A stretch of 64,000 nt of DNA from positions 186,001 through 250,000 of the forward strand of contig CANLNM010000004.1 of the NCBI GenBank assembly GCA_947492475.1, given 5' to 3'. The notes under the pieces are model-generated. The model was given only the letters and a program-made list of their open reading frames with translations. It had not been told where the DNA came from and did no database searches. Shown here one piece after another: positions 300-39,342 of this stretch. The first letter of the stretch is position 1; every line of letters begins with the position of its first letter. Made by a program: the position numbers and the translations under genes. This stretch comes from an uncultured Paracoccaceae bacterium (GTDB lineage Bacteria; Pseudomonadota; Alphaproteobacteria; Rhodobacterales; Rhodobacteraceae).

Positions 300-959
300 T
301 TACGATCCATTTCGAAGTGCCGTGACACCCGACGCAGCAACATGAACGCCACTGGACAGGAGTAGAACCGTTTGATGGCCGTTGCTTTGAACCTCCATCA
401 CTTCCGTGTAAACTTCTACAGGGTCCTGCGTGACCAAATCATCGCCACTAAAATTGGCAAGCTCAAAGCTGTATAGACCCGTTGGCAGAGGCGTACCGTT
501 GCTGTCCAAACCGTCCCATTCGTAGGGGTCAGTAGTCGCAGGAATCTCTCGACGATCAACCTCTGATCCCCATCGGTCCCGAATGACGAGCTCTGTTCGG
601 TCGGCAACCGTCAGCGGATTGGGAGAAACAGTAACGCTATTGGTACCATCCCATTCAGCAGGTGCGATTGCACGTGCTTCTTTTCCAACCCAAGATGCCA
701 TGTCCGACATTCCTGACGCCGCCAATTGACCAGACAGAGCGCTGAGCAAGTCATTGGTCAAAACTTGCTGTTCGACCCCGGAGAATGTCGCGAGTTGAAC
801 CGCGTAATCGGATGAATCCACTGGATTGAGCGGGTCCTGGTTTTGCATTTGAACAGTCAGCATTTTCAGAAAGGTTTCGAAATCTGAACTAACTGACGAG
901 GTTGCATTCGTCGTTGCTGAATGGGTCGTGGTGCTCGCACCAGCCGAATTTACTTCCAT
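300..959 (-). CDS. flgD: Flagellar hook assembly (capping) protein FlgD
   Basis: A 219-residue protein. FlgD forms the temporary cap under which FlgE hook subunits polymerise. Residues about 27-75 carry the diagnostic core, with FLKMLTVQMQNQDPLNPVDS and then a conserved SGVEQ. The C-terminal half (about 105-190) resembles the FlgD Ig/tudor-like region, including the DGLDSNGTPLPTGLY stretch. The ATG is preceded by AGAGGA. It lies 12 bases downstream of fliK on the same strand, so the two hook genes, one capping and one measuring length, form an operon. Length and motif are normal for alphaproteobacteria. Confidence 0.93.
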   Translation of the reverse strand: MEVNSAGASTTTHSATTNATSSVSSDFETFLKMLTVQMQNQDPLNPVDSSDYAVQLATFSGVEQQVLTNDLLSALSGQLAASGMSDMASWVGKEARAIAPAEWDGTNSVTVSPNPLTVADRTELVIRDRWGSEVDRREIPATTDPYEWDGLDSNGTPLPTGLYSFELANFSGDDLVTQDPVEVYTEVMEVQSNGHQTVLLLSSGVHVAASGVTALRNGS

Positions 960-971
960 CGTGGGATCCTC

Positions 972-2984
972 TTAAAGTCTAATGTCTAAATCGGACAACA
1001 ATGCCCGCTCGGTTGGAACTTCATCGGGTGCATCACCAGGCTCAACGGAGCTTTGTGTGTGTGATTGCTCGCTGGATTCACTATCACTGTTTTGTGAACC
1101 TTGTTGTCCGAACGCAAAATCAATTGATGTATATCCAAGCGCCCGAAATTCCTCAGCGAGCACATCGATATGGCGGCGCATCAAATCAGTGGTTTCGGGA
1201 CGCTCTGTATTAATCGTCAAAACCAACGAGGTCTCCGTTGCCGAAAGGCTTAGCTTAACCCTCCCCAGCTCTTCTGGATTTAGGCTAATCTCAGTTGTTC
1301 CAGTTTGCGAAACTGAGATATTCGCAGCGATCTGGCGCGCAACGTTCGATGCCAATTGTGGATTATGAGGCGATGTATTGACCGAGTTTAATCGCGCCTC
1401 TGCTGTCTTAATTTCAGTGTCAACCTGTGTCGCCTGAGCGATTAACATGTCGGAACTGGCTTCGACGTCCACTGGGGCCAATGGTGAAAACGCAACATTC
1501 TGGCTCATCGCAATTGGCGTGGCGACGGCAATGTCCGGGCGTTCAGGAAGCGCGGTCGGTGTTTTTCCCACTGGGCGTTCATTTACCGCATCGCGCAGTG
1601 TACCAAACTTGATTTCTTTCCTCTCAGGTTGCTTCGCATCCACGATAGGCACTGGGTTTGCCTTACTGGTAACCAATGGTGCCGAAGGCATCGTCGCGCT
1701 AGGCGTCGAATTCTGGTGTTTGTTATCTATCGGCGGATTCAAAGGCGCTCGATCATATGTCAAATCTGTGTCAGCTGCTGACTGTACCAACGGGGCCGGT
1801 ATTGTTTTGCTTTGCGTTCGTACTGGAATAGTGTTGCTAATTAGGTTCGTCGTCTCCGCTCGCACAGAACCGGCAACCTGTCTTTCAGCATTTTCCGCTC
1901 GACCTGACTGAGGAACAACATCCATTTTTTCATGACGCAGCCCACCCACTTCGACAGGTTTTTCGGCGGATATCGGCTTGACCTCTTGCGCAGTCGGAGT
2001 CGCGTTTTGAACCGAAGGTTGATGCGATCGCTTTCCCAAAACGTCTGTCATCAATTGGACTGGCGAACTCGGTGATTTGGCGACTTGGGCAATCTGCTCT
2101 TCACCCTTTGCTGACGACAATCGCGGTTCATTCATAGACGTTTGCGATGCGATCTCACCCGGCATCTGCGCCCCAAGAAGGGCATGAAACCTTTGCTGCG
2201 CTACATTGATCCGGACGGGCACAGCATTTCCGTCTTCTACCGGTGCCGCAATAGCTTTACCAATTTCTACAGCTTGAACAGAATTCTCCAACTTTCGCGT
2301 GGCTAATTCTGATGTTTGACCTCGCTGATCGCCCGGATTGCCAAAACTCACATCCTGTGACTTCGTTTCACCTCTTATGGCAATAACCTCAGAATGATTT
2401 ACCTTCAGAATTGGAAAATCTTGCCGCTCAAAAGTGGTGAATTTTACCGGTTCATTTGGATTAGATGTCTGAGCAACTATTCCTGATGCATCAGTGGCTG
2501 AATGACGTCCAATGAGATTCGTCTCAGTTTCTTCGGGTTGGTTTGGCTGAGCGACCGGATCGCTATCGTTTGACACCGTTTGCATCGGAGCCAATGGATT
2601 TGGTTGCTCTTCTACGGTGGAAGTAGGGACTGAATTCTGTTCACCACTTAGCGCGATATTTGCCCCGATGGGCATATATCGCGGAGTATGCATATCAGGT
2701 TGGGCCACCAACCTGCCCTCAGAAGCGTCCTCGCTGGAGCGATCGTCGCCATCGATATCTGGCTCTTCGACCATTTCTGCATCGGGCAATTCTACCTCAG
2801 GTACGGGCTCAGGTACGGGGAGGACCGGAGTACTTTCTGCTTCAATATTCTGCAGCACAGCCAAAAAACCGGTATCGCGCAATGTTTCATTCACGGCACT
2901 TATCGGGTTGATGGTCCCCTCTGACGAAAGCGGAAACACCAGACTGTTCGGCCCAATTATCGAGGAAGTTGATTCGCTTGCCAT
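972..2984 (-). CDS. fliK: Flagellar hook-length control protein FliK
   Basis: About 670 residues. Most of the protein is low-complexity, rich in Pro, Ser, Thr, Glu and Gln, as expected for the ruler part of FliK. The C-terminal ~90 residues hold the conserved FliK domain: SLNPEELGRVKLSLS, then RRHIDVLAEEFRALGY. FliK measures hook length and triggers the FlhB switch to filament-type export. The frame is open to a TTG at 3023, but the ATG at 2984 is the more likely start; neither has a strong ribosome binding site. The next gene upstream is divergent (start 3090). The protein is longer than the enteric FliK (~400 aa), which is common in this group. Confidence 0.88.
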   Translation of the reverse strand: MASESTSSIIGPNSLVFPLSSEGTINPISAVNETLRDTGFLAVLQNIEAESTPVLPVPEPVPEVELPDAEMVEEPDIDGDDRSSEDASEGRLVAQPDMHTPRYMPIGANIALSGEQNSVPTSTVEEQPNPLAPMQTVSNDSDPVAQPNQPEETETNLIGRHSATDASGIVAQTSNPNEPVKFTTFERQDFPILKVNHSEVIAIRGETKSQDVSFGNPGDQRGQTSELATRKLENSVQAVEIGKAIAAPVEDGNAVPVRINVAQQRFHALLGAQMPGEIASQTSMNEPRLSSAKGEEQIAQVAKSPSSPVQLMTDVLGKRSHQPSVQNATPTAQEVKPISAEKPVEVGGLRHEKMDVVPQSGRAENAERQVAGSVRAETTNLISNTIPVRTQSKTIPAPLVQSAADTDLTYDRAPLNPPIDNKHQNSTPSATMPSAPLVTSKANPVPIVDAKQPERKEIKFGTLRDAVNERPVGKTPTALPERPDIAVATPIAMSQNVAFSPLAPVDVEASSDMLIAQATQVDTEIKTAEARLNSVNTSPHNPQLASNVARQIAANISVSQTGTTEISLNPEELGRVKLSLSATETSLVLTINTERPETTDLMRRHIDVLAEEFRALGYTSIDFAFGQQGSQNSDSESSEQSHTQSSVEPGDAPDEVPTERALLSDLDIRL

Positions 2985-3089
2985 TTTATATCCATGCTTC
3001 AATTCATAAGCAGAATGACTCAAATAGCTTACTCAATCTTTACCAGTTTCAAGACACACTCAATCAAATGTAAGAATTTGGAGCACGAT

Positions 3090-3711: not shown

Positions 3712-3918
3712 AACTTTAATCAAAACCGCTGAACACGAAGCTTTGCTGTTAGTAATTCATTTATTGCTTCCCCCCAAACTCAACCTGCATCCGATTGGGA
3801 TGGCGCTGATCTACCACAGTAGATGATCGCAACTGTCAGAATGACGTGTCCTGCCGCTTTGAATGAGCGGTCTATTTAAATCCGGGCGTTGAAACGCCCT
3901 TGTAAAAGGAACTCAAGA
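3712..3918 (+). promoter_or_regulatory. Flagellin upstream region and 5' leader
   Basis: 207 bases with no credible gene. The region must hold the flagellin promoter, but no convincing sigma-54 (TGGCAC-N5-TTGC) or sigma-28 (TAAAG...GCCGATAA) element could be found by eye. Two short inverted repeats occur near the 3' end: CCGCT/AGCGG at 3854-3870, and the stronger stem at 3884-3899, listed separately. The ribosome binding site AAGGA is at 3906-3910. Confidence 0.4.
3884..3899 (+). promoter_or_regulatory. Stem-loop in flagellin 5' leader, candidate FlbT-responsive element
   Basis: GGGCGT (3884-3889) pairs perfectly with ACGCCC (3894-3899) around a TGAA tetraloop. It sits 6 bases before the AAGGA ribosome binding site and 20 bases before the flagellin ATG. 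In Caulobacter, FlbT acts post-transcriptionally on the flagellin mRNA 5' leader, and flbT is encoded just downstream here, so this stem is a natural candidate target. The structure is read directly from the sequence; the regulatory role is inferred. Confidence 0.45.
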
Positions 3919-5112
3919 ATGTCCAGCATTCTGACCAACAATGGCGCAATGGTCGCGCTGCAAACTCTGAAATCCATCAACAACCAACTGGGTGATACTC
4001 AGGGTATGATCTCAACGGGTAAATCCGTTGCATCCGCCAAAGACAACTCCGCGGTTTGGGCGATTTCCAAAGTGATGGAATCTGATGTCAAAGGCTTCAA
4101 AGCCATTTCTGACAGCCTTGCACTGGGTGAATCTACGGTTGCTGTTGCCAGCAACGCGTCCGAAACAATCACTGACCTTCTGACGCAGATGAAGGGCAAA
4201 ATTGTTGCCGCACAAGAAGACAACGTTGATCGCGGTAAAATCAACGATGACGTTACTGCGTTGAAAGATCAGATTAACTCTGTTGTTTCAGCGGCGCAGT
4301 TCAACGGTTTGAACCTGATTGATGGGTCTCAAGGTGCAACAATTGATGTTTTGTCCTCTTTGGATCGTGATGCGTCTGGTACTGTAACAGCGTCCAACAT
4401 CAGTGTGTCCACCCAGGATTTGTCCACAGGTGGTTACACTGCAGCGGCGGTGTTTACCGGTACGACTGGTGTTTCAACCAGCGCTGATGTGTTTGGGATG
4501 ACAATTGATGACGGTTCAAGCGACTCTGTTGTTATTGTCGACCCCACTTTCGCCGCAGGTGATAAAATTTCTTTGACTGTGGGTGAAGAGGAGGTTTCGT
4601 ACACCTTCACCGCAGATGACGTTGCAGCTACCACGCCAGAAGATATCGCAGCGGTTGGATTGCGCGCTGCATTGCAAGCGACTGGGCTTGCGATCGATGT
4701 GGATTTTAGTTCTACGGGTACATTGGATATCACCAACAACACTGGGAACGACCTTACAATCTCTGGTCAGTTTACCAATGCCGGTTCTGGTGGCCTTGGT
4801 GCACTTGCAGCGATTGATGTTTCAACGGCTCTTGGTGCATCCGCTGCGTTGGGGTCCATCGAAACTTTGATTGACACAGCGATTTCTGCATCGGCGTCCT
4901 TTGGTTCGGTACAAGGTCGGATTGAAACTCAGTCTGATTTTATCTCCAAACTGACCGACTCCTTGAAATCCGGTATCGGGTCAATGGTAGATGCGGACAT
5001 GGAAGAGGCATCAGCCCGTCTGCAGGCGCTTCAGGTTCAACAACAGCTGGGTACCCAGTCGTTGTCGATCGCCAACCAGGCGCCTCAGTCTATCCTGTCG
5101 CTCTTCCGTTAA
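3919..5112 (+). CDS. fliC: Flagellin (filament subunit)
   Basis: 397 residues starting at MSSILTNNGAM (ATG 3919, AAGGA 9 bases upstream); an in-frame start at 3889 would add an unlikely basic extension. The N-terminal D0/D1 region (to about residue 140) has the flagellin pattern SAKDNSAVWAISKVM and LTQMKGKIVAAQEDN. The C-terminal D1/D0 region ends in QQQLGTQSLSIANQAPQSILSLFR, typical of alphaproteobacterial flagellins. The variable centre (about 150-310) is Thr, Ser and Ala rich and could be the surface-exposed, modifiable part. Only one flagellin gene is present in this cluster. FlaF and FlbT follow directly. Confidence 0.95.
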   Translation: MSSILTNNGAMVALQTLKSINNQLGDTQGMISTGKSVASAKDNSAVWAISKVMESDVKGFKAISDSLALGESTVAVASNASETITDLLTQMKGKIVAAQEDNVDRGKINDDVTALKDQINSVVSAAQFNGLNLIDGSQGATIDVLSSLDRDASGTVTASNISVSTQDLSTGGYTAAAVFTGTTGVSTSADVFGMTIDDGSSDSVVIVDPTFAAGDKISLTVGEEEVSYTFTADDVAATTPEDIAAVGLRAALQATGLAIDVDFSSTGTLDITNNTGNDLTISGQFTNAGSGGLGALAAIDVSTALGASAALGSIETLIDTAISASASFGSVQGRIETQSDFISKLTDSLKSGIGSMVDADMEEASARLQALQVQQQLGTQSLSIANQAPQSILSLFR

Positions 5113-21465: not shown

Positions 21466-21600
21466 ATGGCTTTTCGTCCAAATACATACTTTAATTTACC
21501 AAACTCCGACATCAATATGATCAAGGTTTACGCGCAAGTTAGTAAAACAAAGTTGGCCCATCGTTCTTTCGTAACAATACCGGAGGGAAACGATGAATAG
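21466..21600 (+). CDS. Possible 44-residue small protein overlapping the flhA start
   Basis: An ATG at 21466, preceded by AAGG at a good spacing, opens a 44-codon frame. It ends with TAG at 21598-21600 and overlaps the first eight bases of flhA in another frame. The product starts MAFRPNTYFNLPNSDINMIK and is basic and soluble. It could be a genuine small protein or a leader that couples ribosome delivery to flhA, whose own GGAGGG site lies inside it. It is short enough to occur by chance. Confidence 0.35.
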   Translation: MAFRPNTYFNLPNSDINMIKVYAQVSKTKLAHRSFVTIPEGNDE

Positions 21601-23686
21601 TTTTTCGCTGAAAAACCTGTTTCAGCCAACAATCCTTTTGTCCCTGGCTTTGATGGCCATCATCGTAATGATGATCCTCCCAATGCCAGCTTGGGTACTT
21701 GACCTTGGATTGGCAGTTTCGTTTTCACTTGCGATTTTGATATTTACCGTCACGCTATTCATCGAACGTCCGCTTGATTTTTCTTCGTTCCCGACGGTTT
21801 TGTTGGCATCCTTGATGCTGCGTTTGTCTTTGAATGTCTCGTCAACGAAACTCATTATTGGGGAAGGTCACACCGGCACAAACGCCGCCGGGGAAGTCAT
21901 TGAAGGGTTTGCCAACTTCGTCATGGGGGGCAACGTCTTTCTAGGCCTTGTCGTTTTTTGCGTCCTGCTCATTGTAAACTTTATCGTCATTAACAAAGGC
22001 GCGACGCGTATGGCCGAAGTTGGGGCGCGCTTCGCCCTTGATGGCATGCCCGGAAAACAGCTCGCTATCGACAGCGATATGAGCGCTGGCGCAATCAATC
22101 ATGAAGAAGCAAAGCTGCGTCGAGAAACCGAACAAGCCGAAACCACTTTTTTTGGCTCACTTGACGGTGCTTCCAAATTTGTAAAAGGCGACGCAGTCGC
22201 TGGCCTGCTTATCACGGGCTTGAATTTGATTGTTGGCTTAATCATCGGCGTGACGATGCATGATATGGCTATTGGAAAGGCATTTGAAACCTATGCCATT
22301 CTAACAGTTGGCGATGGGCTGGTCAGCCAAATCCCTTCCGTCATTATCTCGATTGCTTCGGCATTGCTTTTGGCCAGGGGCGGTGCAAAGGGCGCAACCG
22401 ACCTCGCGATGGTATCTCAGCTCGGCCGCCACCCTTCTGCTCTTACTACAGTAGGGGTGTTGATGGCGCTTTTTGCACTGGTGCCTGGATTGCCGTTTGT
22501 GCCGTTCATTATCGGTGCAAGCGTTTTGTTTGCTTGCGCATTTTTAGTGCGTCGAAAACAGTTACAAGAAGCCGCATTGGCGCAATCCGCTGAAGTCGGC
22601 GAAGTTCAACCTCAGGTTCACACGTCGATGGGGGACGTGCTTGACCTTGACGACATCCATGTCGAATTTGCTCCTGATTTAGTTGAAATGGTACTTGATC
22701 AAGGAACCGGGCTGGATGCGCGGATCGCCAATATGAGGAACCATGTAGCAACTGAATTCGGGTTGTTGCTACCTGAGATCCGATTGACCGACAATTCGGC
22801 GCTTTCAATGGGTGAATATATCATTAAAATTCAAGGCGTTGAGCAAGCCAGAGATGTGCTTAGGCCAGACAAACTCCTTGCGCTACTTTCCGGCCCGGTC
22901 GACGACAGCATCGCAGGCGAAGATGTATCTGAACCGGTTTATGGCGCCCCAGCTCGATGGGTTTCATCGGGCGAACAAGAGGCCACCGCCATTCGCGGCA
23001 TGACAACGGTTCTGCCCACCGAAGTATTGGCAACGCATCTGCTTGAAGTCATCAAAAGAAACTTCCGGCGGCTTCTTACTCTCAAGGCGCTCAGGCGCTT
23101 GTTGGATGAAATGGTCAACCTCTCGGACGCGTCGCGTGCAGAAGCAAATCGGAAAATGCTGGATGAGTTGATCCCAGAGCGTGTCTCGATTGATGTTTTG
23201 TTATCTGTCCTCAGATTGCTACTCGAAGAGCGTGTCTCGATCCGTAACCTTGGCTTAATAATCGAGGCATGTGCGGAGGCGCGGCAAATTCACACCACTT
23301 CAGAAGGCATTGCAGAACACGTGCGTCAAAGGCTCGGCTTTCAGCTTGTTGCGGAACTTCGCCGCCAAGATGGGACCATTCCCTTGATCCAACTGGCGCC
23401 AGAATGGGAGGACGTGTTCACGACCTATCAACTCAACAACGATCGCGGGCCCGCTGATGTCGCGCTACCGCCTGATGACTTCAACAGACTTGCAAATGCC
23501 ATTTCGGCAAAACTGTCTCTTGCCGCTGAAAACGGGAATTTCCCTGCAATTGTCACTTCAATGCGCAGGCGGCGATTTGTGCGAACGGTTATGTCCGCCA
23601 AGGGGATATCGAACCCCGTGCTTTCATTTGAAGAAATCGGTGTCGATGCGCGTCCCGCATTGGTGGGCATGGTTCCTGCTGCATGA
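21593..23686 (+). CDS. flhA: Flagellar export gate protein FlhA
   Basis: 697 residues with GGAGGG before the ATG. The first ~320 residues contain eight membrane helices and the FHIPEP signatures: FPTVLLASLMLRLSLNVSS, then ATRMAEVGARFALDGMPGKQ and MSAGAINHEEAKLRRE. The C-terminal cytoplasmic domain binds chaperone-substrate complexes. FlhA forms the nonameric export ring. It overlaps fliR by four bases, and fliR overlaps flhB, giving a compact export-gate operon. Confidence 0.96.
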   Translation: MNSFSLKNLFQPTILLSLALMAIIVMMILPMPAWVLDLGLAVSFSLAILIFTVTLFIERPLDFSSFPTVLLASLMLRLSLNVSSTKLIIGEGHTGTNAAGEVIEGFANFVMGGNVFLGLVVFCVLLIVNFIVINKGATRMAEVGARFALDGMPGKQLAIDSDMSAGAINHEEAKLRRETEQAETTFFGSLDGASKFVKGDAVAGLLITGLNLIVGLIIGVTMHDMAIGKAFETYAILTVGDGLVSQIPSVIISIASALLLARGGAKGATDLAMVSQLGRHPSALTTVGVLMALFALVPGLPFVPFIIGASVLFACAFLVRRKQLQEAALAQSAEVGEVQPQVHTSMGDVLDLDDIHVEFAPDLVEMVLDQGTGLDARIANMRNHVATEFGLLLPEIRLTDNSALSMGEYIIKIQGVEQARDVLRPDKLLALLSGPVDDSIAGEDVSEPVYGAPARWVSSGEQEATAIRGMTTVLPTEVLATHLLEVIKRNFRRLLTLKALRRLLDEMVNLSDASRAEANRKMLDELIPERVSIDVLLSVLRLLLEERVSIRNLGLIIEACAEARQIHTTSEGIAEHVRQRLGFQLVAELRRQDGTIPLIQLAPEWEDVFTTYQLNNDRGPADVALPPDDFNRLANAISAKLSLAAENGNFPAIVTSMRRRRFVRTVMSAKGISNPVLSFEEIGVDARPALVGMVPAA

Positions 23687-31053: not shown

Positions 31054-31887
31054 TTACTGATCACTGCGTAGAACCACGATTTCGATGCGGTTGTTGCGCG
31101 GCGAAGTCGGATTCGATGTCAGGATTTTGCGATCTGCATAGCCAACAACCCGTTCGATTCGGGTGCTTTCAAATTGCGCGTTTTCCAGCAGCATTCGGAT
31201 TTGTTGCGCCCGCGAGGTCGACAATTCCCAAACCGGGTTTTCACTGACCACCAATGCCCGTGATCGCGTATGACCTTTGATCGCCAGATCGTTTTCAACC
31301 ATGCTGAGGACCCGTGCAAACATCGACACCAATTCAACTGTGGTTTCGGTTGGCATATTGGTTTCCCCATCAAAGAGGGGCGCGCCCGGCAGGTCAAAAA
31401 TCTCGACGATCAAACCTTCGTCCGTGAGACGCGTCAGAACGTGCCGCATGGCCCGATCTGAAACAAGGCTTTCTCCACCGATGCCAAGCAGTTGCTGTTC
31501 GACATTTTCAAGTGCAGCAACCTGCGCCGGTGTTTGACCACCATCCGCCTGCACATCGGAATCACCGGGGCGTACAGTATCACCCGAGAAATTCCCGGCA
31601 CCACCGGTGCCATTTTCCGCCAAACTGTCCTGAGAAAAGACACTGCTGCCCCCAAAGGCACCATCGCCCCCGCCAGAAATCCGATTGATCGGAATTGTAG
31701 GGGAAAAATAATCTGCGATACCTTTGCGCTGCTGTTCGGTCGTCGCGTTCAACAGCCACATAAGCATAAAAAACGCCATCATCGCGGTCACAAAATCCGC
31801 ATAGGCCACTTTCCAAGCGCCACCATGATGACCGTCCCCACCGACGACCTTCTTGCGCTTGATAATTACTGGTGCCTCATTTGACAT
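31054..31887 (-). CDS. motB: Flagellar stator protein MotB
   Basis: 277 residues: cytoplasmic lysine-rich start, one membrane helix containing the ion-carrying Asp in VAYADFVTAMMAFFMLMWLL, a Gly/Asp-rich plug and linker, and a C-terminal OmpA-like domain. The OmpA-like part contains LAIKGHTRSR and LSTSRAQQIRMLLE, and it binds peptidoglycan. It is upstream of flgE on the same strand with a 110-base gap, away from motA. The Asp motif suggests proton rather than sodium use, but that cannot be proved from sequence. Confidence 0.95.
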   Translation of the reverse strand: MSNEAPVIIKRKKVVGGDGHHGGAWKVAYADFVTAMMAFFMLMWLLNATTEQQRKGIADYFSPTIPINRISGGGDGAFGGSSVFSQDSLAENGTGGAGNFSGDTVRPGDSDVQADGGQTPAQVAALENVEQQLLGIGGESLVSDRAMRHVLTRLTDEGLIVEIFDLPGAPLFDGETNMPTETTVELVSMFARVLSMVENDLAIKGHTRSRALVVSENPVWELSTSRAQQIRMLLENAQFESTRIERVVGYADRKILTSNPTSPRNNRIEIVVLRSDQ

Positions 31888-31971: not shown

Positions 31972-32760
31972 CTAATTGGCCCTATCAAGGTTAACAGCAC
32001 CTCTATCGTGGTAAATATCGTCTTTACCGCAAAATTCAATCAAATCGTATCCGTTTTCACGCATGATTTCAGGGATTTCCGAGCTTTGAGCGTTATTTTC
32101 AATCGACCAGATTCGCGGCCTGAATCGCCCAAATGGGAACGCTTTTAGAACGGCCACTTCGCCGCCTTCGATGTCCAGAGACAATAGGTCAGGTATTTCC
32201 AAACCCGCCTCGTCCAGGATCATTTCCAGCGTTTGCGTTTCAACCCGGTGCACCTTTTCTTTGTGCCGGGGATCTGATCGAACGGCGTCCAACAGGCCCG
32301 GGTCATAGGTGCCCGACAGCCCGCTCATCTGGGTGTAGCCTTCGCTGATTTCAATAAATTCCGCATCGCCATTTTGGGCCGCGACGGCCACGCCAATGCA
32401 GGAACATCTTCGAACTCTGCGGGCCTTTTCCAATTGCGCCGGGACGGGTTCCACCAGAATGCCGGTCCAATTGCGAAACAGTTCCAAAAAGAACGTGTTT
32501 GATCCAGTGACCCCATCATAGCCGCCAATATCCACAAAGGTGCCGCCGCGTTTGCCTTTGAATATCCGGTCAATGACCGCGTCCTGACCAGCCTGCGACG
32601 AATACCGGTAATCAGGGTTCATCGCGCGTCGGACTTCGTGCAGATGCAAGTTCAGCGCCCCGCGCGCCCGGCTTTTGTCTGCGTTCAACGCTTCTCTGAG
32701 CTCGGTCTCAGCGGATTTCAGGCTGGAACGGGCCATGTTTAGATGCGCTTTGACGTTCAT
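31972..32760 (-). CDS. FkbM-family methyltransferase
   Basis: 262 residues. The SAM-binding part has FVDIGGYDGVTGSNTFFLE and LVEPVPAQLEKARR; the FkbM-type LLSLDIEGGEVAVLKAFPFG follows at about 190-210. FkbM-like enzymes usually O-methylate sugars or small molecules. It is the last gene of a four-gene operon with 3-4 base gaps or overlaps, next to the flagellar cluster. This suggests that it methylates a glycan, possibly on flagellin or the cell surface. It overlaps the DUF6165 gene by four bases. Confidence 0.8.
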   Translation of the reverse strand: MNVKAHLNMARSSLKSAETELREALNADKSRARGALNLHLHEVRRAMNPDYRYSSQAGQDAVIDRIFKGKRGGTFVDIGGYDGVTGSNTFFLELFRNWTGILVEPVPAQLEKARRVRRCSCIGVAVAAQNGDAEFIEISEGYTQMSGLSGTYDPGLLDAVRSDPRHKEKVHRVETQTLEMILDEAGLEIPDLLSLDIEGGEVAVLKAFPFGRFRPRIWSIENNAQSSEIPEIMRENGYDLIEFCGKDDIYHDRGAVNLDRAN

Positions 32761-33167
32761 GAGGCACCGCCAGTGTAATCGGCATAGGATTTTTCCTCGA
32801 TCAGGTCCGATCCAAGATGAAGGTTGATCCGTTTTTTCACATCAGACCGTTGGTCATTGGTCACATAAACAGCGCGGGCCAAATCGATAAAGGTTTGCCC
32901 AAAATCCCCGGCCGCCTCGCAATCGCGAATGTCGTCTTCGATTTTCCAAAGCGCAGCGTTCACCTGATACAATTCATCCCACAGGGCGGTCAGGGTTTGC
33001 GACGGCGGCAGCTTTGACTGCGCCGTTTTGGTCAGCACAGTTTGTTCATGCCGAACATTGGTCAGTTTTGCCGGGTCGGTGATGTGTTCGGTCTTTAGCC
33101 GCAGGATCGTCAACTTGTCGATCAATTCACCGGGCGAGGTTGGGACTAAAATTGTTTCCACCTTCAC
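32757..33167 (-). CDS. DUF6165 family protein
   Basis: 136 residues from a GTG at 33167 whose first base overlaps the stop of the upstream gene (GTGA), so translation is coupled; upstream TTG at 33182 is less likely. The pattern VPTSPGELIDKLTILRLKTEHI followed by LWDELYQVNAALWKIEDDIRDCEA, all helical, fits the small DUF6165 family. It is known mainly beside TPR/glycosyltransferase genes. The function is unknown. No membrane helix or signal. Confidence 0.65.
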   Translation of the reverse strand: MKVETILVPTSPGELIDKLTILRLKTEHITDPAKLTNVRHEQTVLTKTAQSKLPPSQTLTALWDELYQVNAALWKIEDDIRDCEAAGDFGQTFIDLARAVYVTNDQRSDVKKRINLHLGSDLIEEKSYADYTGGAS

Positions 33168-34543
33168 CGCTCCTTCTTCCAATCTTTAATACACTTAATC
33201 AATTCAGGCTGTACCTGATCGAAAACGCTGCCCCAATCATGGGGCGCAGTTTGACGAAACAGCCGCATCGACGGATACCATGGCATCGTGTCACCTGTAT
33301 GGCCAAAAAACCAAAACGGATCCCAATGCAGCAACGTCCAGACAGGAACGCCAAGTGAACCGGCAATATGGGCCGTTGCGGTGTCAGACGTAATGACCAA
33401 ATCCATGTCCTGCATCATCGCGGCACAATCGGCAAAGTCCCGATCCGTGCTGGCCGCATCAATGATGAACGCAGCGCTACCATCCGCCTGAAACGCCTCT
33501 AATGCGGGACCTTTGTAGAGTGAAAACAGCTGCACATCGTCCAGATCAACCAGTCTGAGGAATTCCTGATGGCCAAACGACCGGAAACTGTTTCCCTTGA
33601 ACGTCACAGAGCCGCTCCAGACGATGCCGACCTTAAACACATCCTTATAGGGCGCGACGATCTGAGCTGCGCGGTGTTTGGCATCGGTGGGCGTATTCAA
33701 TCGCGTTGGCGGGGGAATGTCCCCGACGGTTTTCAAACCGACACGGGGCAGGTCCATAACCGTCATCCAGACGTCAAATTTCTCATCCTTTGAGACAACT
33801 TTGCCGATCCAATCGATTCCTTCGGCGGTCTCAAACAATCGGGCCATGGGTTTTTCCGCCATGACATGAACGCGCCCGGCAATTTCACGAAGCTGGGGCA
33901 AAAATCGCATCATCAGCACCGCATCCCCAAACCCCTGTTCAGGAACAACCAGAACCTTTTTGCCGGTTAGATCGCCCCCGTCCCATTTCGGATAGGGGAT
34001 CGATATTGGTTTGGCCTCTGCGGTGTCCCAACGGGCTTCGTAATTTTGCAAACCCGCCTCGAATTGACGATCCGCCAGCTGGGCAAATCCCAATTGCAGC
34101 TTTATCTCTGCGTCGTCAGGATGCATGCCCAGCGCGGCCTCTAGATGGGTGATTGCATCTGAATATCGCCCCAAAGACCTGAGCGATTTGCCAATCAGCG
34201 CCTTTTGTTGCGTGTCATTTGGGGTCTGTTCCAGAATTTCGTGGCGCAGCGCGATGCTTTCTTTGTGGAACCCAACATCGTTCAGGATATTTGCCAGATT
34301 ATTGCGCACACCGGCCATTTCTGGCTGCGCCGCATAAGCGCGTCGTTGGGCGCGTAATGCCTGATCATGTCGTTCCGTAGACCGATATAACGCGCCCAGA
34401 TTGGTCCAAATTCCTGCATCTTTTGGACGCGCACTTAGATACCGGCAATAGGCATCCTGGGCTGCTTTGATATCCCCTTTTTGATGCGCATTGATGGCCC
34501 CATGACGCAGCGCCGCCAACTGATCGTTTGATAGAGTTTGCAC
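33164..34543 (-). CDS. TPR-glycosyltransferase fusion protein
   Basis: 459 residues. Residues 1-165 are about five TPR repeats, for example AGIWTNLGALYRSTERHDQA and SLGRYSDAITHLEAALGMHP. Residues 190-459 form a GT-B-like domain with KVLVVPEQGFGDAVLMMRFLP, KVGIVWSGS and a late MDLVITSDTATAHIAGSLGV, like heptosyltransferase/GT41-type enzymes. In Caulobacter, FlmG is a TPR-glycosyltransferase that recognises flagellin through its TPR part. Its place beside motB makes a similar role possible here, but no sialic or pseudaminic acid synthesis genes are present. Confidence 0.75.
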   Translation of the reverse strand: MQTLSNDQLAALRHGAINAHQKGDIKAAQDAYCRYLSARPKDAGIWTNLGALYRSTERHDQALRAQRRAYAAQPEMAGVRNNLANILNDVGFHKESIALRHEILEQTPNDTQQKALIGKSLRSLGRYSDAITHLEAALGMHPDDAEIKLQLGFAQLADRQFEAGLQNYEARWDTAEAKPISIPYPKWDGGDLTGKKVLVVPEQGFGDAVLMMRFLPQLREIAGRVHVMAEKPMARLFETAEGIDWIGKVVSKDEKFDVWMTVMDLPRVGLKTVGDIPPPTRLNTPTDAKHRAAQIVAPYKDVFKVGIVWSGSVTFKGNSFRSFGHQEFLRLVDLDDVQLFSLYKGPALEAFQADGSAAFIIDAASTDRDFADCAAMMQDMDLVITSDTATAHIAGSLGVPVWTLLHWDPFWFFGHTGDTMPWYPSMRLFRQTAPHDWGSVFDQVQPELIKCIKDWKKER

Positions 34544-34546
34544 ATC

Positions 34547-35329
34547 TTATCCTTTAGATCGCCGGATGGGTTTGACCAGAGTTTCAGGGCGACGCTCTTC
34601 GGCGGCTTGAAACAGGGAAAACGTCTGATTGACGAAATTCACAGCGCCAGAAATCATGTCCATATATTCAAGTAGTTCTGGGGTGCGTTCCGTTTCGGTT
34701 AAGACAACAGCGCGGTCCTGCGGCATGGTTTCGAAATACACATAAAACCACGGATCCCCACGATTGATTTTCAGCGGCTTATCCGTGTCATGCCATTCAA
34801 ACGCCCACATCAGCGGGCGCGGCCAAACATTGATCGGATACCGTCCGCCAAAAATTGTGCCCGGCAATTGATCGCGTTGATAATGCATAAAGCACGACAA
34901 TTGCGTCACATAAACCGGCTCATCACTGATCATCACATAAGGCGTCATGACCTGAATGGTTGGCACCCCCGGATAACGCCATTCATGTTCTGGGGTGATG
35001 TGAATTTGCTGGGACAGTTTATTGGCGCGAATGCCGCTCATGTTGCCATTCAAATTCCGCAGCGCTGGCTTGCCTTCGTTATCACGGACAAAGGCCAGAT
35101 GAATATCAAACGGCGCCTTCACCATGAAATAGCGGCTTTCCATGTTGATAACCGCAGGACAGCGTGACGCGCTTTTGGCATGCGATTTGTTCTGCTCGAC
35201 GCTGCGTACACGTTCAGGCGGATCGTAAATGATGCTGCCTTTGGTCGTGTTTAAAAACCACCCAACGGTCACCGGACCGGATTTGGGGGCCACATCGCGT
35301 GTATTTTCAAAAGAAACTGACAATTGCAT
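34547..35329 (-). CDS. Conserved-looking protein of unknown function, first gene of the TPR-glycosyltransferase operon
   Basis: 260 residues from the ATG at 35329 (AGGA upstream); the open frame reaches 35395 but the extension is hydrophobic and lacks a site. The protein is rich in aromatic residues and beta-strand patterns, with several Trp-rich segments (PINVWPRPLMWAFEWHDTD; GDPWFYVYFETMP). It has no signal or membrane helix. I do not recognise the family. It ends three bases before the TPR-glycosyltransferase gene, so it probably acts in the same modification step. Confidence 0.6.
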   Translation of the reverse strand: MQLSVSFENTRDVAPKSGPVTVGWFLNTTKGSIIYDPPERVRSVEQNKSHAKSASRCPAVINMESRYFMVKAPFDIHLAFVRDNEGKPALRNLNGNMSGIRANKLSQQIHITPEHEWRYPGVPTIQVMTPYVMISDEPVYVTQLSCFMHYQRDQLPGTIFGGRYPINVWPRPLMWAFEWHDTDKPLKINRGDPWFYVYFETMPQDRAVVLTETERTPELLEYMDMISGAVNFVNQTFSLFQAAEERRPETLVKPIRRSKG

Positions 35330-37134: not shown

Positions 37135-37900
37135 CGCACCCATCCTTTTGGATATTTCTGATCATATTGCGCGGGTGACACTGAACCGGCCACAAAAACG
37201 TAATGCCGTTGATGCAACTATGTGTGCCGCGATCACACAGGCCTTTGACACGATCGAGGCAGACCCAAATGTCCGCGTGACGGTGTTGTCTGGAAAGGGT
37301 CCTGTTTTTTGCTCAGGGATGGATCTGCGAGCGTATCAACAGGGGCAATCGGACCAGATTTTGTTTGGGCAATACGGGTTTGCGGGGTTCGTAAAACGCC
37401 GCAGACAAAAACCAGTGATTGCCGCGGTTCACGGGGCCGCATTGGCCGGAGGATTTGAAATAATGCTGGCCTGCGATTTGGCCGTTGCCAGTGAAAATGC
37501 CGTATTTGGATTGCCAGAGGCAAAGCTTGGCCTGATCGCTGGTGGCGGTGGCGCATTTCGACTGGCCCAGCGCATGCCGCGGGTTTTGGCCAATGAAATG
37601 CTTTTATCCGGTCGGTCTGTTTCAGCTCAGGTGATGCAGCAATATGGAATGCTCAATCACGTGACGTCCGACGGTGAAGTAATTGACAAAGCACATGAAA
37701 TAGCGACGGACATCGCCAAAAACGCACCGCTCAGTCTGGCGTCCAGCCTCGCATTGTCGGATCAATCCTGCGCTGTATCAGAACCTGATTTATGGGCGCA
37801 AAGCGATGCAGCACTGTCGCAATTGGGCCAATCTCATGACGTCCAAGAAGGCATTTCGGCCTTCTTGGAAAAACGTGCGCCAAAATGGCAGGGATCCTAA
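37124..37900 (+). CDS. Enoyl-CoA hydratase/isomerase family protein (crotonase fold)
   Basis: 258 residues from the ATG at 37124, which lies inside the end of the synthetase gene (11-base overlap). The crotonase core is visible as RVTLNRPQKRNAVDATM, GPVFCSGMDLRAYQQG (oxyanion hole), AAVHGAALAGGFEIMLACDL and the AVFGLPEAKLGLIAGGGGAFRLAQRMP segment. It hydrates or isomerises an enoyl-CoA intermediate. The residue at the first catalytic glutamate region is GGGAFRL, so its exact reaction (hydratase, isomerase or hydrolase) is uncertain. It ends with a 4-base tail-to-tail overlap with manC. Confidence 0.85.
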   Translation: MTTDAPILLDISDHIARVTLNRPQKRNAVDATMCAAITQAFDTIEADPNVRVTVLSGKGPVFCSGMDLRAYQQGQSDQILFGQYGFAGFVKRRRQKPVIAAVHGAALAGGFEIMLACDLAVASENAVFGLPEAKLGLIAGGGGAFRLAQRMPRVLANEMLLSGRSVSAQVMQQYGMLNHVTSDGEVIDKAHEIATDIAKNAPLSLASSLALSDQSCAVSEPDLWAQSDAALSQLGQSHDVQEGISAFLEKRAPKWQGS

Positions 37901-39342
37901 CCCTTTGCGCCCTGCCCGCGTGCATAAACATCTTCGAGGCGCACAATGTCATCCTCACCCAGATAGGACCCGGTTTGAACTTCGATCAAAACCATGGGCA
38001 CTTTGCCGGGGTTTTCCATGCGATGCACAGCGCCTAGCGGGATGTAAACGGACTGATTTTCGGACACCAATTTGACCTCATCATCGATGGTCACTTTGGC
38101 GGTGCCTTCGACAACAATCCAATGCTCCGAACGGTGGTGATGGCTCTGTAGACTCAGGGCAGCGCCGGGATGCACGTGAATGCGTTTCACCTGAAATCTG
38201 GACCCAATAACCAAGCTTTCAAACCACCCCCATGGGCGGTGATCCTTGGGAAAATCGGTTGCCTGCGCGGACCCTTTGGTTTTCAGGGCGGCAACGGCTT
38301 TTTTGACGTCTTGGGCGCGGGACATGTCAGCGATCAGAACCGCATCATTCATCGCCACCGCCATCACATTATCCAGCCCTACACCAACCAGTTCCAACTG
38401 ATCGCTGTCGGATCGCAGCAACGTGTTGTTGCAATCAATGGCCGTCGCGTCCCCAGAGGTGACAACGCCGTTTTCGTCTGGTCCAAATTCCCGCCAGACC
38501 GCGTCCCAGCCCCCTAAATCGGACCAGCCGCCGTCAAATGGCACAACCGACAGATTATCAGACCGTTCCATAACTGCGTAATCGATTGAAATGTCTTCGG
38601 CTTGGCACCAATCGTCGGGTGCCAGACGCAAGAACCCCAAATCAACCTCGGCATTGGTCACGGCATTCCCAACCGGCCCCATCAGAGCAGGCGCATAAGA
38701 TTTAAATGCCTCAACAATGTCGCGCGCTTTGAACAGGAAAATGCCCGCATTCCACAGGAAATGACCCGCCTCAAGCATTTGAACCGCATGATCATGATCT
38801 GGCTTTTCAACAAATTGCTTTAGGTCAATCGCGGTGCCATTTGCGTCCGGTTTTGCCGACAATTCCAGATACCCATAGGCGGTTTCTGCATGGGTCGGCT
38901 GGATGCCAAATGTGACCAGCTTTCCGTCTTGGATCGCTTCCAAGCCCTTGGTGACGGCTTTGTGAAATGCGGCTTTGTCCAGAACCACGTGATCAGATGG
39001 GGCAACCAACATGATCGCCTCTGGGTCTTTTTCCAGCAAATACAACGCAGCGGCCAAAACGGCGGGTGCTGTATTTCGCCCCTCTGGTTCGATCAATATT
39101 GCATTGGGGTCGATGCCGATTTCGGTCAGTTGTTCCGTCACAATGAACCGAAAATCTGACCCTGTCAAAATAACCGGCTTGTCGAATTCGATGCCGTTTT
39201 CGGCCCCGCTCAACCGATGAGCAGACGCCTGAAACAGGGTTTCCTCGCCCACCAATGGCACAAATTGTTTGGGATAGCTTTTTCGGGACAAAGGCCAAAG
39301 CCGCGTCCCTGATCCGCCACAAAGGATGACCGGTGTCACCAT
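37897..39342 (-). CDS. manC: Mannose-1-phosphate guanylyltransferase/mannose-6-phosphate isomerase
   Basis: 481 residues, the normal length of the bifunctional type II PMI/GMP enzyme. The N-terminal nucleotidyltransferase has PVILCGGSGTRLWPLSRKS and YPKQFVPL, with FVEKPDHDHA further on. The C-terminal cupin isomerase domain has SLQSHHHRSEHWIVVEGTAKV and ends near HRMENPGKVPMVLIEVQTGSY. It makes GDP-mannose for surface polysaccharides or for fucose-type sugars. The gene stands alone, 185 bases downstream of the lacI-type gene, and converges with the enoyl-CoA hydratase gene. Confidence 0.93.
   Translation of the reverse strand: MVTPVILCGGSGTRLWPLSRKSYPKQFVPLVGEETLFQASAHRLSGAENGIEFDKPVILTGSDFRFIVTEQLTEIGIDPNAILIEPEGRNTAPAVLAAALYLLEKDPEAIMLVAPSDHVVLDKAAFHKAVTKGLEAIQDGKLVTFGIQPTHAETAYGYLELSAKPDANGTAIDLKQFVEKPDHDHAVQMLEAGHFLWNAGIFLFKARDIVEAFKSYAPALMGPVGNAVTNAEVDLGFLRLAPDDWCQAEDISIDYAVMERSDNLSVVPFDGGWSDLGGWDAVWREFGPDENGVVTSGDATAIDCNNTLLRSDSDQLELVGVGLDNVMAVAMNDAVLIADMSRAQDVKKAVAALKTKGSAQATDFPKDHRPWGWFESLVIGSRFQVKRIHVHPGAALSLQSHHHRSEHWIVVEGTAKVTIDDEVKLVSENQSVYIPLGAVHRMENPGKVPMVLIEVQTGSYLGEDDIVRLEDVYARGQGAKG

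What the first reader, a model, noticed from the sequence alone, without database searches (positions are those of the whole stretch)
31972..35329. TPR-glycosyltransferase operon beside motB: candidate flagellin modification module
Four genes, unknown protein - TPR/GT-B fusion - DUF6165 - FkbM methyltransferase, are linked by gaps of three bases or 4-base overlaps, directly next to the flagellar cluster. In Caulobacter a TPR-glycosyltransferase (FlmG) docks on flagellin. Here the flagellin has a Thr/Ser-rich central region and no sialic or pseudaminic acid genes are nearby, so the sugar could be a different one with an added methyl group. The first and third proteins have no assigned role.
Basis: partly seen in the sequence, partly recalled or inferred. 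Interest (0 to 1): 0.6.

Follow-up and report, generated by a model that had tools for sequence, protein, structure and literature searches.

The report
Flagellum-linked glycosyltransferase operon
Four overlapping genes beside the flagellar genes of a marine bacterium encode what is probably a small kit that puts a methylated sugar on a protein, most likely flagellin; the kit is kept beside flagellar genes in dozens of related species, but it also survives in some species that have lost the flagellum, so its target is not proven.

Summary
Four minus-strand genes at 31972-35329 are linked by a 3-base gap and two 4-base overlaps, 84 bases from motB. They encode an unannotated 260-aa protein (GENE1), a TPR/GT-B fusion, a DUF6165 protein and an FkbM methyltransferase. 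The linkage is conserved: of 80 named loci fetched with GENE1, 67 have the TPR-GT, 66 DUF6165, 63 FkbM and 62 motB, in the same order. In 120 family genomes the TPR-GT and DUF6165 occur in exactly the same 18. Distances of the operon proteins track those of MotB and FlgE. The host genome has no NeuB and no PF01973 match, so nonulosonic acid (FlmG's donor) is unlikely.

Three results weaken the flagellin reading. Flagellins of genomes with and without the operon have similar Ser/Thr content. TPR-GT/DUF6165 pairs also occur beside non-flagellar genes and in phages. The full operon stays intact in genomes that have lost FlhA and the flagellin gene, although leftover fliK and flgD are intact too, so this is not decisive.

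Best reading: an intracellular protein O-glycosylation cassette with a methylated sugar, probably acting on flagellin (0.5). A separate observation: the flagellar core is repeatedly lost at the same nucleotides.

The parts
34547..35329 (-). GENE1: 260-aa protein of unknown function; no Pfam or NCBIfam family; weak PHROG match; AF2 model with weak, consistent similarity to the dUTPase/dCTP-deaminase beta fold
33164..34543 (-). TPR-GT: N-terminal TPR repeats fused to a GT-B type glycosyltransferase domain (nearest solved chain by sequence 3tov, GT family 9); GTG start
32757..33167 (-). DUF6165 protein (136 aa), predicted four-helix protein with many invariant charged residues
31972..32760 (-). 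FkbM-family (Methyltransf_21) methyltransferase
31054..31887 (-). motB, first gene of the adjacent flagellar operon (motB-flgE-flgK-flgL-flgI)
3919..5112 (+). flagellin of the same fla1 cluster, the proposed acceptor (ORF listing gives the earlier in-frame TTG at 3889)

Best explanation
The four genes form one transcriptional unit for a cytoplasmic protein O-glycosylation cassette. The TPR half of the second protein binds an unfolded or monomeric export substrate, most likely flagellin made from the same cluster, and its GT-B half transfers a sugar from a nucleotide donor that is not a nonulosonic acid. The FkbM enzyme O-methylates that sugar. DUF6165 is an accessory subunit or a nucleotide-sugar-handling protein of the glycosyltransferase, and GENE1 (possible dUTPase-like fold) a further accessory or nucleotide-binding protein. 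Shown: gene structure, families, conserved order, tight TPR-GT/DUF6165 co-occurrence, co-inheritance with fla1 genes, absence of NeuB. Inferred: co-transcription, enzyme activity, substrate, sugar, and the roles of DUF6165 and GENE1.
For: Overlapping genes. In 80 named loci: TPR-GT 67, DUF6165 66, FkbM 63, motB 62, with fliK/flgD adjacent in most of the loci that carry the operon but no detected motB. TPR-GT and DUF6165 in the same 18 of 120 genomes. Pairwise distance correlations of operon proteins with MotB 0.67-0.80 and with FlgE 0.55-0.72. TPR plus GT-B layout as in Caulobacter FlmG, whose TPR part binds flagellin (PMC7591256). DUF6165 occurs beside TPR-GT-type domains class-wide (14/40 loci against 1/18 control regions) and beside sugar enzymes in phages. 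No NeuB or PF01973 match in the genome.
Against: Flagellin Ser/Thr content does not track the operon. Wenxinia marina (described as non-motile, PMC4148994) and other genomes lack FlhA yet keep all four genes full length; leftover fliK and flgD are also full length there, so this is weak. Only 18 of 120 family genomes have the TPR-GT while 100 have motB, so it is not needed for flagella in general. Outside the family no flagellar genes were found near DUF6165 (0/40). Limimaricola keeps GENE1 beside motB without the other three genes.
Confidence: 0.5

Rival explanations
1. The cassette glycosylates a different exported or surface protein (an RTX-type secreted protein, a pilin or an adhesin), and its place beside motB is a historical location at the edge of the fla1 cluster.
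For: Operon full length in FlhA-less genomes. Related TPR-GT/DUF6165 pairs sit beside an RTX-repeat protein (L091) and, with GENE1 and an apparent FkbM-type methyltransferase, beside a 1478-aa protein that looks secreted (L045). Phage TPR-GTs sit near tail-fibre or capsid genes.
Against: Strong positional conservation with fla1 genes in dozens of species. RTX genes are not clearly enriched near DUF6165 across the class (3/40 against 1/18 control).
Confidence: 0.25
2. The operon builds or decorates a polysaccharide (LPS or capsule) and is not a protein-modification system.
For: The GT domain is nearest GT9, the heptosyltransferase family. DUF6165 in phages sits beside sugar-nucleotide and other GT genes. 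A mannose-1-phosphate guanylyltransferase/mannose-6-phosphate isomerase gene lies about 2.6 kb away at 37897-39342.
Against: The TPR fusion suggests protein recognition; no polysaccharide export or polymerisation genes were seen in the operon or its direct neighbours; conserved linkage to fla1.
Confidence: 0.15
3. The module acts on another flagellar part (hook, hook-junction or MotB) rather than on flagellin.
For: It lies directly upstream of motB-flgE-flgK-flgL-flgI on the same strand, about 27 kb from flagellin.
Against: Known flagellar glycosylation of this layout (FlmG) targets flagellins (PMC7591256).
Confidence: 0.1

Closest known systems
FlmG of Caulobacter crescentus (CCNA_01524)
   Same: Soluble protein with N-terminal TPR domain and C-terminal GT-B-type domain; flagellum-linked in this family
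   Different: Here 459 aa against 596 aa for FlmG; operon partners DUF6165, FkbM and GENE1; no NeuB in the genome, whereas FlmG needs pseudaminic acid (PMC7591256); sequence orthology not tested because the FlmG sequence was not retrieved
TPR/GT9-like proteins paired with DUF6165 in other Alphaproteobacteria and in phages
   Same: GT-domain profile and DUF6165 profile both match, often as neighbouring genes
   Different: No flagellar neighbours in the 40 class loci examined; the GENE1 and FkbM profiles had no match in those loci
FkbM-family O-methyltransferases (PF05050, TIGR01444)
   Same: Clear family match over the whole domain
   Different: Substrate unknown
dUTPase / dCTP deaminase superfamily (fold only, GENE1)
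   Same: The AF2 model's best solved-structure matches are consistently dUTPases (VIA Z about 8, residues 18-205)
   Different: No Pfam dUTPase match, Foldseek E above 0.003, TM scores to query below 0.4 in the listed rows; similarity may be only a common beta arrangement

Membership tests
FlmG class of flagellin O-glycosyltransferases | N-terminal TPR plus C-terminal GT-B domain in one soluble protein | tested here: met
   (GT9/GT-B assignment is weak: 4e-4 by Pfam, 7.5e-6 to 3tov)
FlmG class of flagellin O-glycosyltransferases | Pseudaminic (nonulosonic) acid donor made in the same cell | tested here: not met
   no NeuB (PF03102) in the 99.99%-complete genome; Caulobacter vibrioides control positive
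FlmG class of flagellin O-glycosyltransferases | TPR domain binds flagellin; flagellin is glycosylated | not testable with these tools
   needs two-hybrid and mass spectrometry
FlmG class of flagellin O-glycosyltransferases | Sequence orthology to C. crescentus FlmG | not tested
   FlmG sequence not retrieved
FkbM methyltransferase | Methyltransf_21 / FkbM domain above curated cut-off | tested here: met
   69.4 bits against 22.7; TIGR01444 48 against 37.7
DUF6165 (PF19662) | Profile match above gathering score | tested here: met
   42.7 against 27 bits
dUTPase superfamily (GENE1) | dUTPase-like beta fold with dUTPase sequence family match | tested here: inconclusive
   fold similarity only, no Pfam dUTPase match

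The most novel reading that the evidence does not exclude
TPR-GT plus DUF6165 is a portable protein-glycosylation core shared by bacteria and phages, with DUF6165 as a near-obligate partner of unknown biochemistry. In part of the Rhodobacteraceae it has been joined by an FkbM methyltransferase and a new dUTPase-fold protein and adapted to flagellar substrates with a non-nonulosonic, methylated sugar.
Probability: 0.25. Interest if true: 0.7.

Novelty: new variant of a known kind. Interest (0 to 1): 0.48.

Why it matters
If true, it would give FlmG-like protein glycosylation a second lineage with a different sugar and two uncharacterised partner families, in marine bacteria for which searches of the paper library found no report of flagellin glycosylation. 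It would also offer a tractable system for finding what DUF6165, which is widespread in phages, does next to glycosyltransferases.

Tried and rejected
Flagellin Ser/Thr content as support: rejected, no clear difference with and without the operon. General linkage of DUF6165 to RTX proteins: not supported class-wide (3/40 against 1/18), despite individual examples. dN/dS as a test of function after flagellum loss: no usable power, because some losses are recent, dS is near saturation, and motB/flgE remnants give similar values. Apparent flagellin genes beside the operon in six loci turned out to be 5' flagellin fragments at deletion scars. DUF6165 fold search: four-helix bundle with no informative match. 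GENE1 has no sequence match in the PDB. Orphan GENE1 copies sit at non-flagellar spots, by appearance clpB, pyrF and pyc neighbours (identified by eye from the translations, not by profile), which gives no functional hint. A search for papers on DUF6165 found none. An orthology tree with FlmG could not be made. Terminator and promoter scans were at chance level.

Full report
Observation. Searches confirm four minus-strand genes at 31972-35329 with a 3-base gap and two 4-base overlaps (GTGA, ATGA), followed after 84 bases by motB-flgE-flgK-flgL-flgI. Profiles give TPR plus a weak GT9-type domain, DUF6165 and FkbM, and nothing for the first gene. The window holds a fla1-type cluster: flgD and fliK at 300-3023, flagellin at 3919-5112, flhA at 21593-23686, and motB at the far end (the fla1 name follows the cluster order described in PMC12363192).

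Conservation. In 120 genomes of the family, GENE1 was found in 21, the TPR-GT in 18 and DUF6165 in the same 18, against 100 for motB. In most of these the TPR-GT and DUF6165 genes are neighbours; G090 is a clear exception, with the two on different contigs. A scan of named genomes with GENE1 returned 80 loci, with TPR-GT in 67, DUF6165 in 66, FkbM in 63 and motB in 62, in the order GENE1-TPRGT-DUF6165-FkbM-motB. These loci were chosen by GENE1, so the counts describe its neighbourhood and not the whole family. Among 48 complete loci, pairwise distances of the operon proteins correlate with those of MotB (0.67-0.80) and FlgE (0.55-0.72), as expected for co-inheritance. Some Limimaricola keep GENE1 beside motB without the other three genes.

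Substrate and donor. The genome has no NeuB and no PF01973 match, so the FlmG donor is unlikely unless made by an unknown route. The flagellin centre has 25% Ser+Thr, against 19-26% in 13 flagellins from genomes without the operon and 18-23% in seven others from genomes with the TPR-GT; this argument therefore carries no weight. A GDP-mannose-type gene (manC) lies at 37897-39342, a lead only.

Other settings of the same parts. Across the class, DUF6165 was found in 51 of 385 genomes. Of 40 loci examined, 14 have a TPR-GT-type GT domain near it (1 of 18 control regions), none has flagellar genes, and 3 have RTX repeats (1 of 18 control). Within the family, L091 has the pair beside an RTX-repeat protein, and L045 has a GENE1, apparent FkbM-type methyltransferase, TPR-GT and DUF6165 set beside a 1478-aa protein (identities other than the profile and BLAST matches were judged from the translations). 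In IMG/VR contigs DUF6165 is abundant (497 confirmed among the 600 stretches returned), mostly without this TPR-GT (1 of 80) but among sugar enzymes and other glycosyltransferases (judged from the translations). Cyanophage S-SRM01 carries both, the TPR-GT gene lying a few genes from a long-tail-fibre gene.

GENE1 and DUF6165. The AF2 model of GENE1 (pLDDT 83) matches dUTPases and dCTP deaminases consistently but weakly (best Foldseek E 0.0034; VIA Z about 8 over about 110-135 residues); phage relatives are uncharacterised. The model of DUF6165 is a confident four-helix protein (pLDDT 92) with invariant D, K, W, E, R and N residues over 44-53% identity to phage proteins, which suggests a ligand-binding or catalytic role; this is inference.

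Does the operon need a flagellum? FlhA was not found in G032, G050 and G117, and G006 has only a 39% homolog. Among 50 named genomes, eight had no FlhA (those of L111, L119, L140, L141, L146, L150, L154, L174; L146 and L150 are MAGs), and nine had only a 36-40% homolog, interpreted here as the fla2 type. In seven of the eight FlhA-less genomes all four operon genes are full length; DUF6165 was not detected in L146. Wenxinia marina (L154) is described as non-motile, and a flagellin search of G050, which appears to be the same genome, found nothing. The leftover fliK and flgD genes are also full length, and dN/dS does not separate flagellated from non-flagellated pairs for motB or flgE either, so this cannot be read as proof of a non-flagellar function. 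It lowers confidence in the flagellin reading.

A separate observation made on the way. Loci that have lost the flagellar core share the same scar: motB ends after ...GGAWKVA and is joined to the complement of the flagellin start codon with its ribosome-binding site. This was seen at the protein level in L111, L136, L140, L141, L149, L151, L154, L158 and L174, at the DNA level in L100, L111, L140, L149, L151 and L158, and for L140 and L141 against intact sisters. These loci are scattered among intact ones in the operon tree. L140 is 94% identical to intact L139 on the left and 97% in FlgD on the right; L141 and intact L144 are 88% in both, so at least these two are separate events, and the tree suggests more. 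A second scar joins flgE near codon 430 to flagellin codon 57, in L119, L132, L146, L152, L157 and L170, with an apparent short shared sequence (CCAGACCG, read by eye). A search of 395 genomes found the first scar's signature in 8, five of them without FkbM, DUF6165 or TPR-GT matches within about 1.5 kb. The mechanism is not explained.

Verdict. The operon is real, conserved and flagellum-linked in this family. The best-supported reading is an FlmG-like protein glycosylation cassette with a different, methylated sugar, but its target has not been shown.

Noticed in passing
L140, L141, L111, L136, L149, L151, L154, L158, L174, L100 (motB end); also L365-L372: Loss of the flagellar core leaves the same scar in scattered lineages: motB is cut after ...GGAWKVA and joined to the complement of the flagellin start codon. 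L140/L139 and L141/L144 are sister pairs without and with the core. Mechanism unexplained; almost no shared sequence at the junction.
   Followed up: partly
L119, L132, L146, L152, L157, L170: A second shared scar: flgE cut near codon 430 and joined to the complement of flagellin codon 57, with an apparent 8-base shared sequence CCAGACCG.
   Followed up: partly
viral contigs L181-L260; phage S-SRM01 (L282): DUF6165 is very common in uncultivated phage contigs at 43-54% identity to the window protein, next to sugar-nucleotide and glycosyltransferase genes.
   Followed up: partly
L180, L281: Distant GENE1 relatives occur in phages; L180 holds two profile matches in nearby genes close to apparent virion structural genes.
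   Followed up: no
window 37897-39342: A mannose-1-phosphate guanylyltransferase/mannose-6-phosphate isomerase gene lies about 2.6 kb from the operon, a possible donor-sugar gene.
   Followed up: no
L034, L037, L041, L042, L044, L177: GENE1 homologs (about 55-65% identical) also occur alone, away from flagellar genes, at sites that look like clpB, pyrF or pyc neighbourhoods by eye.
   Followed up: no
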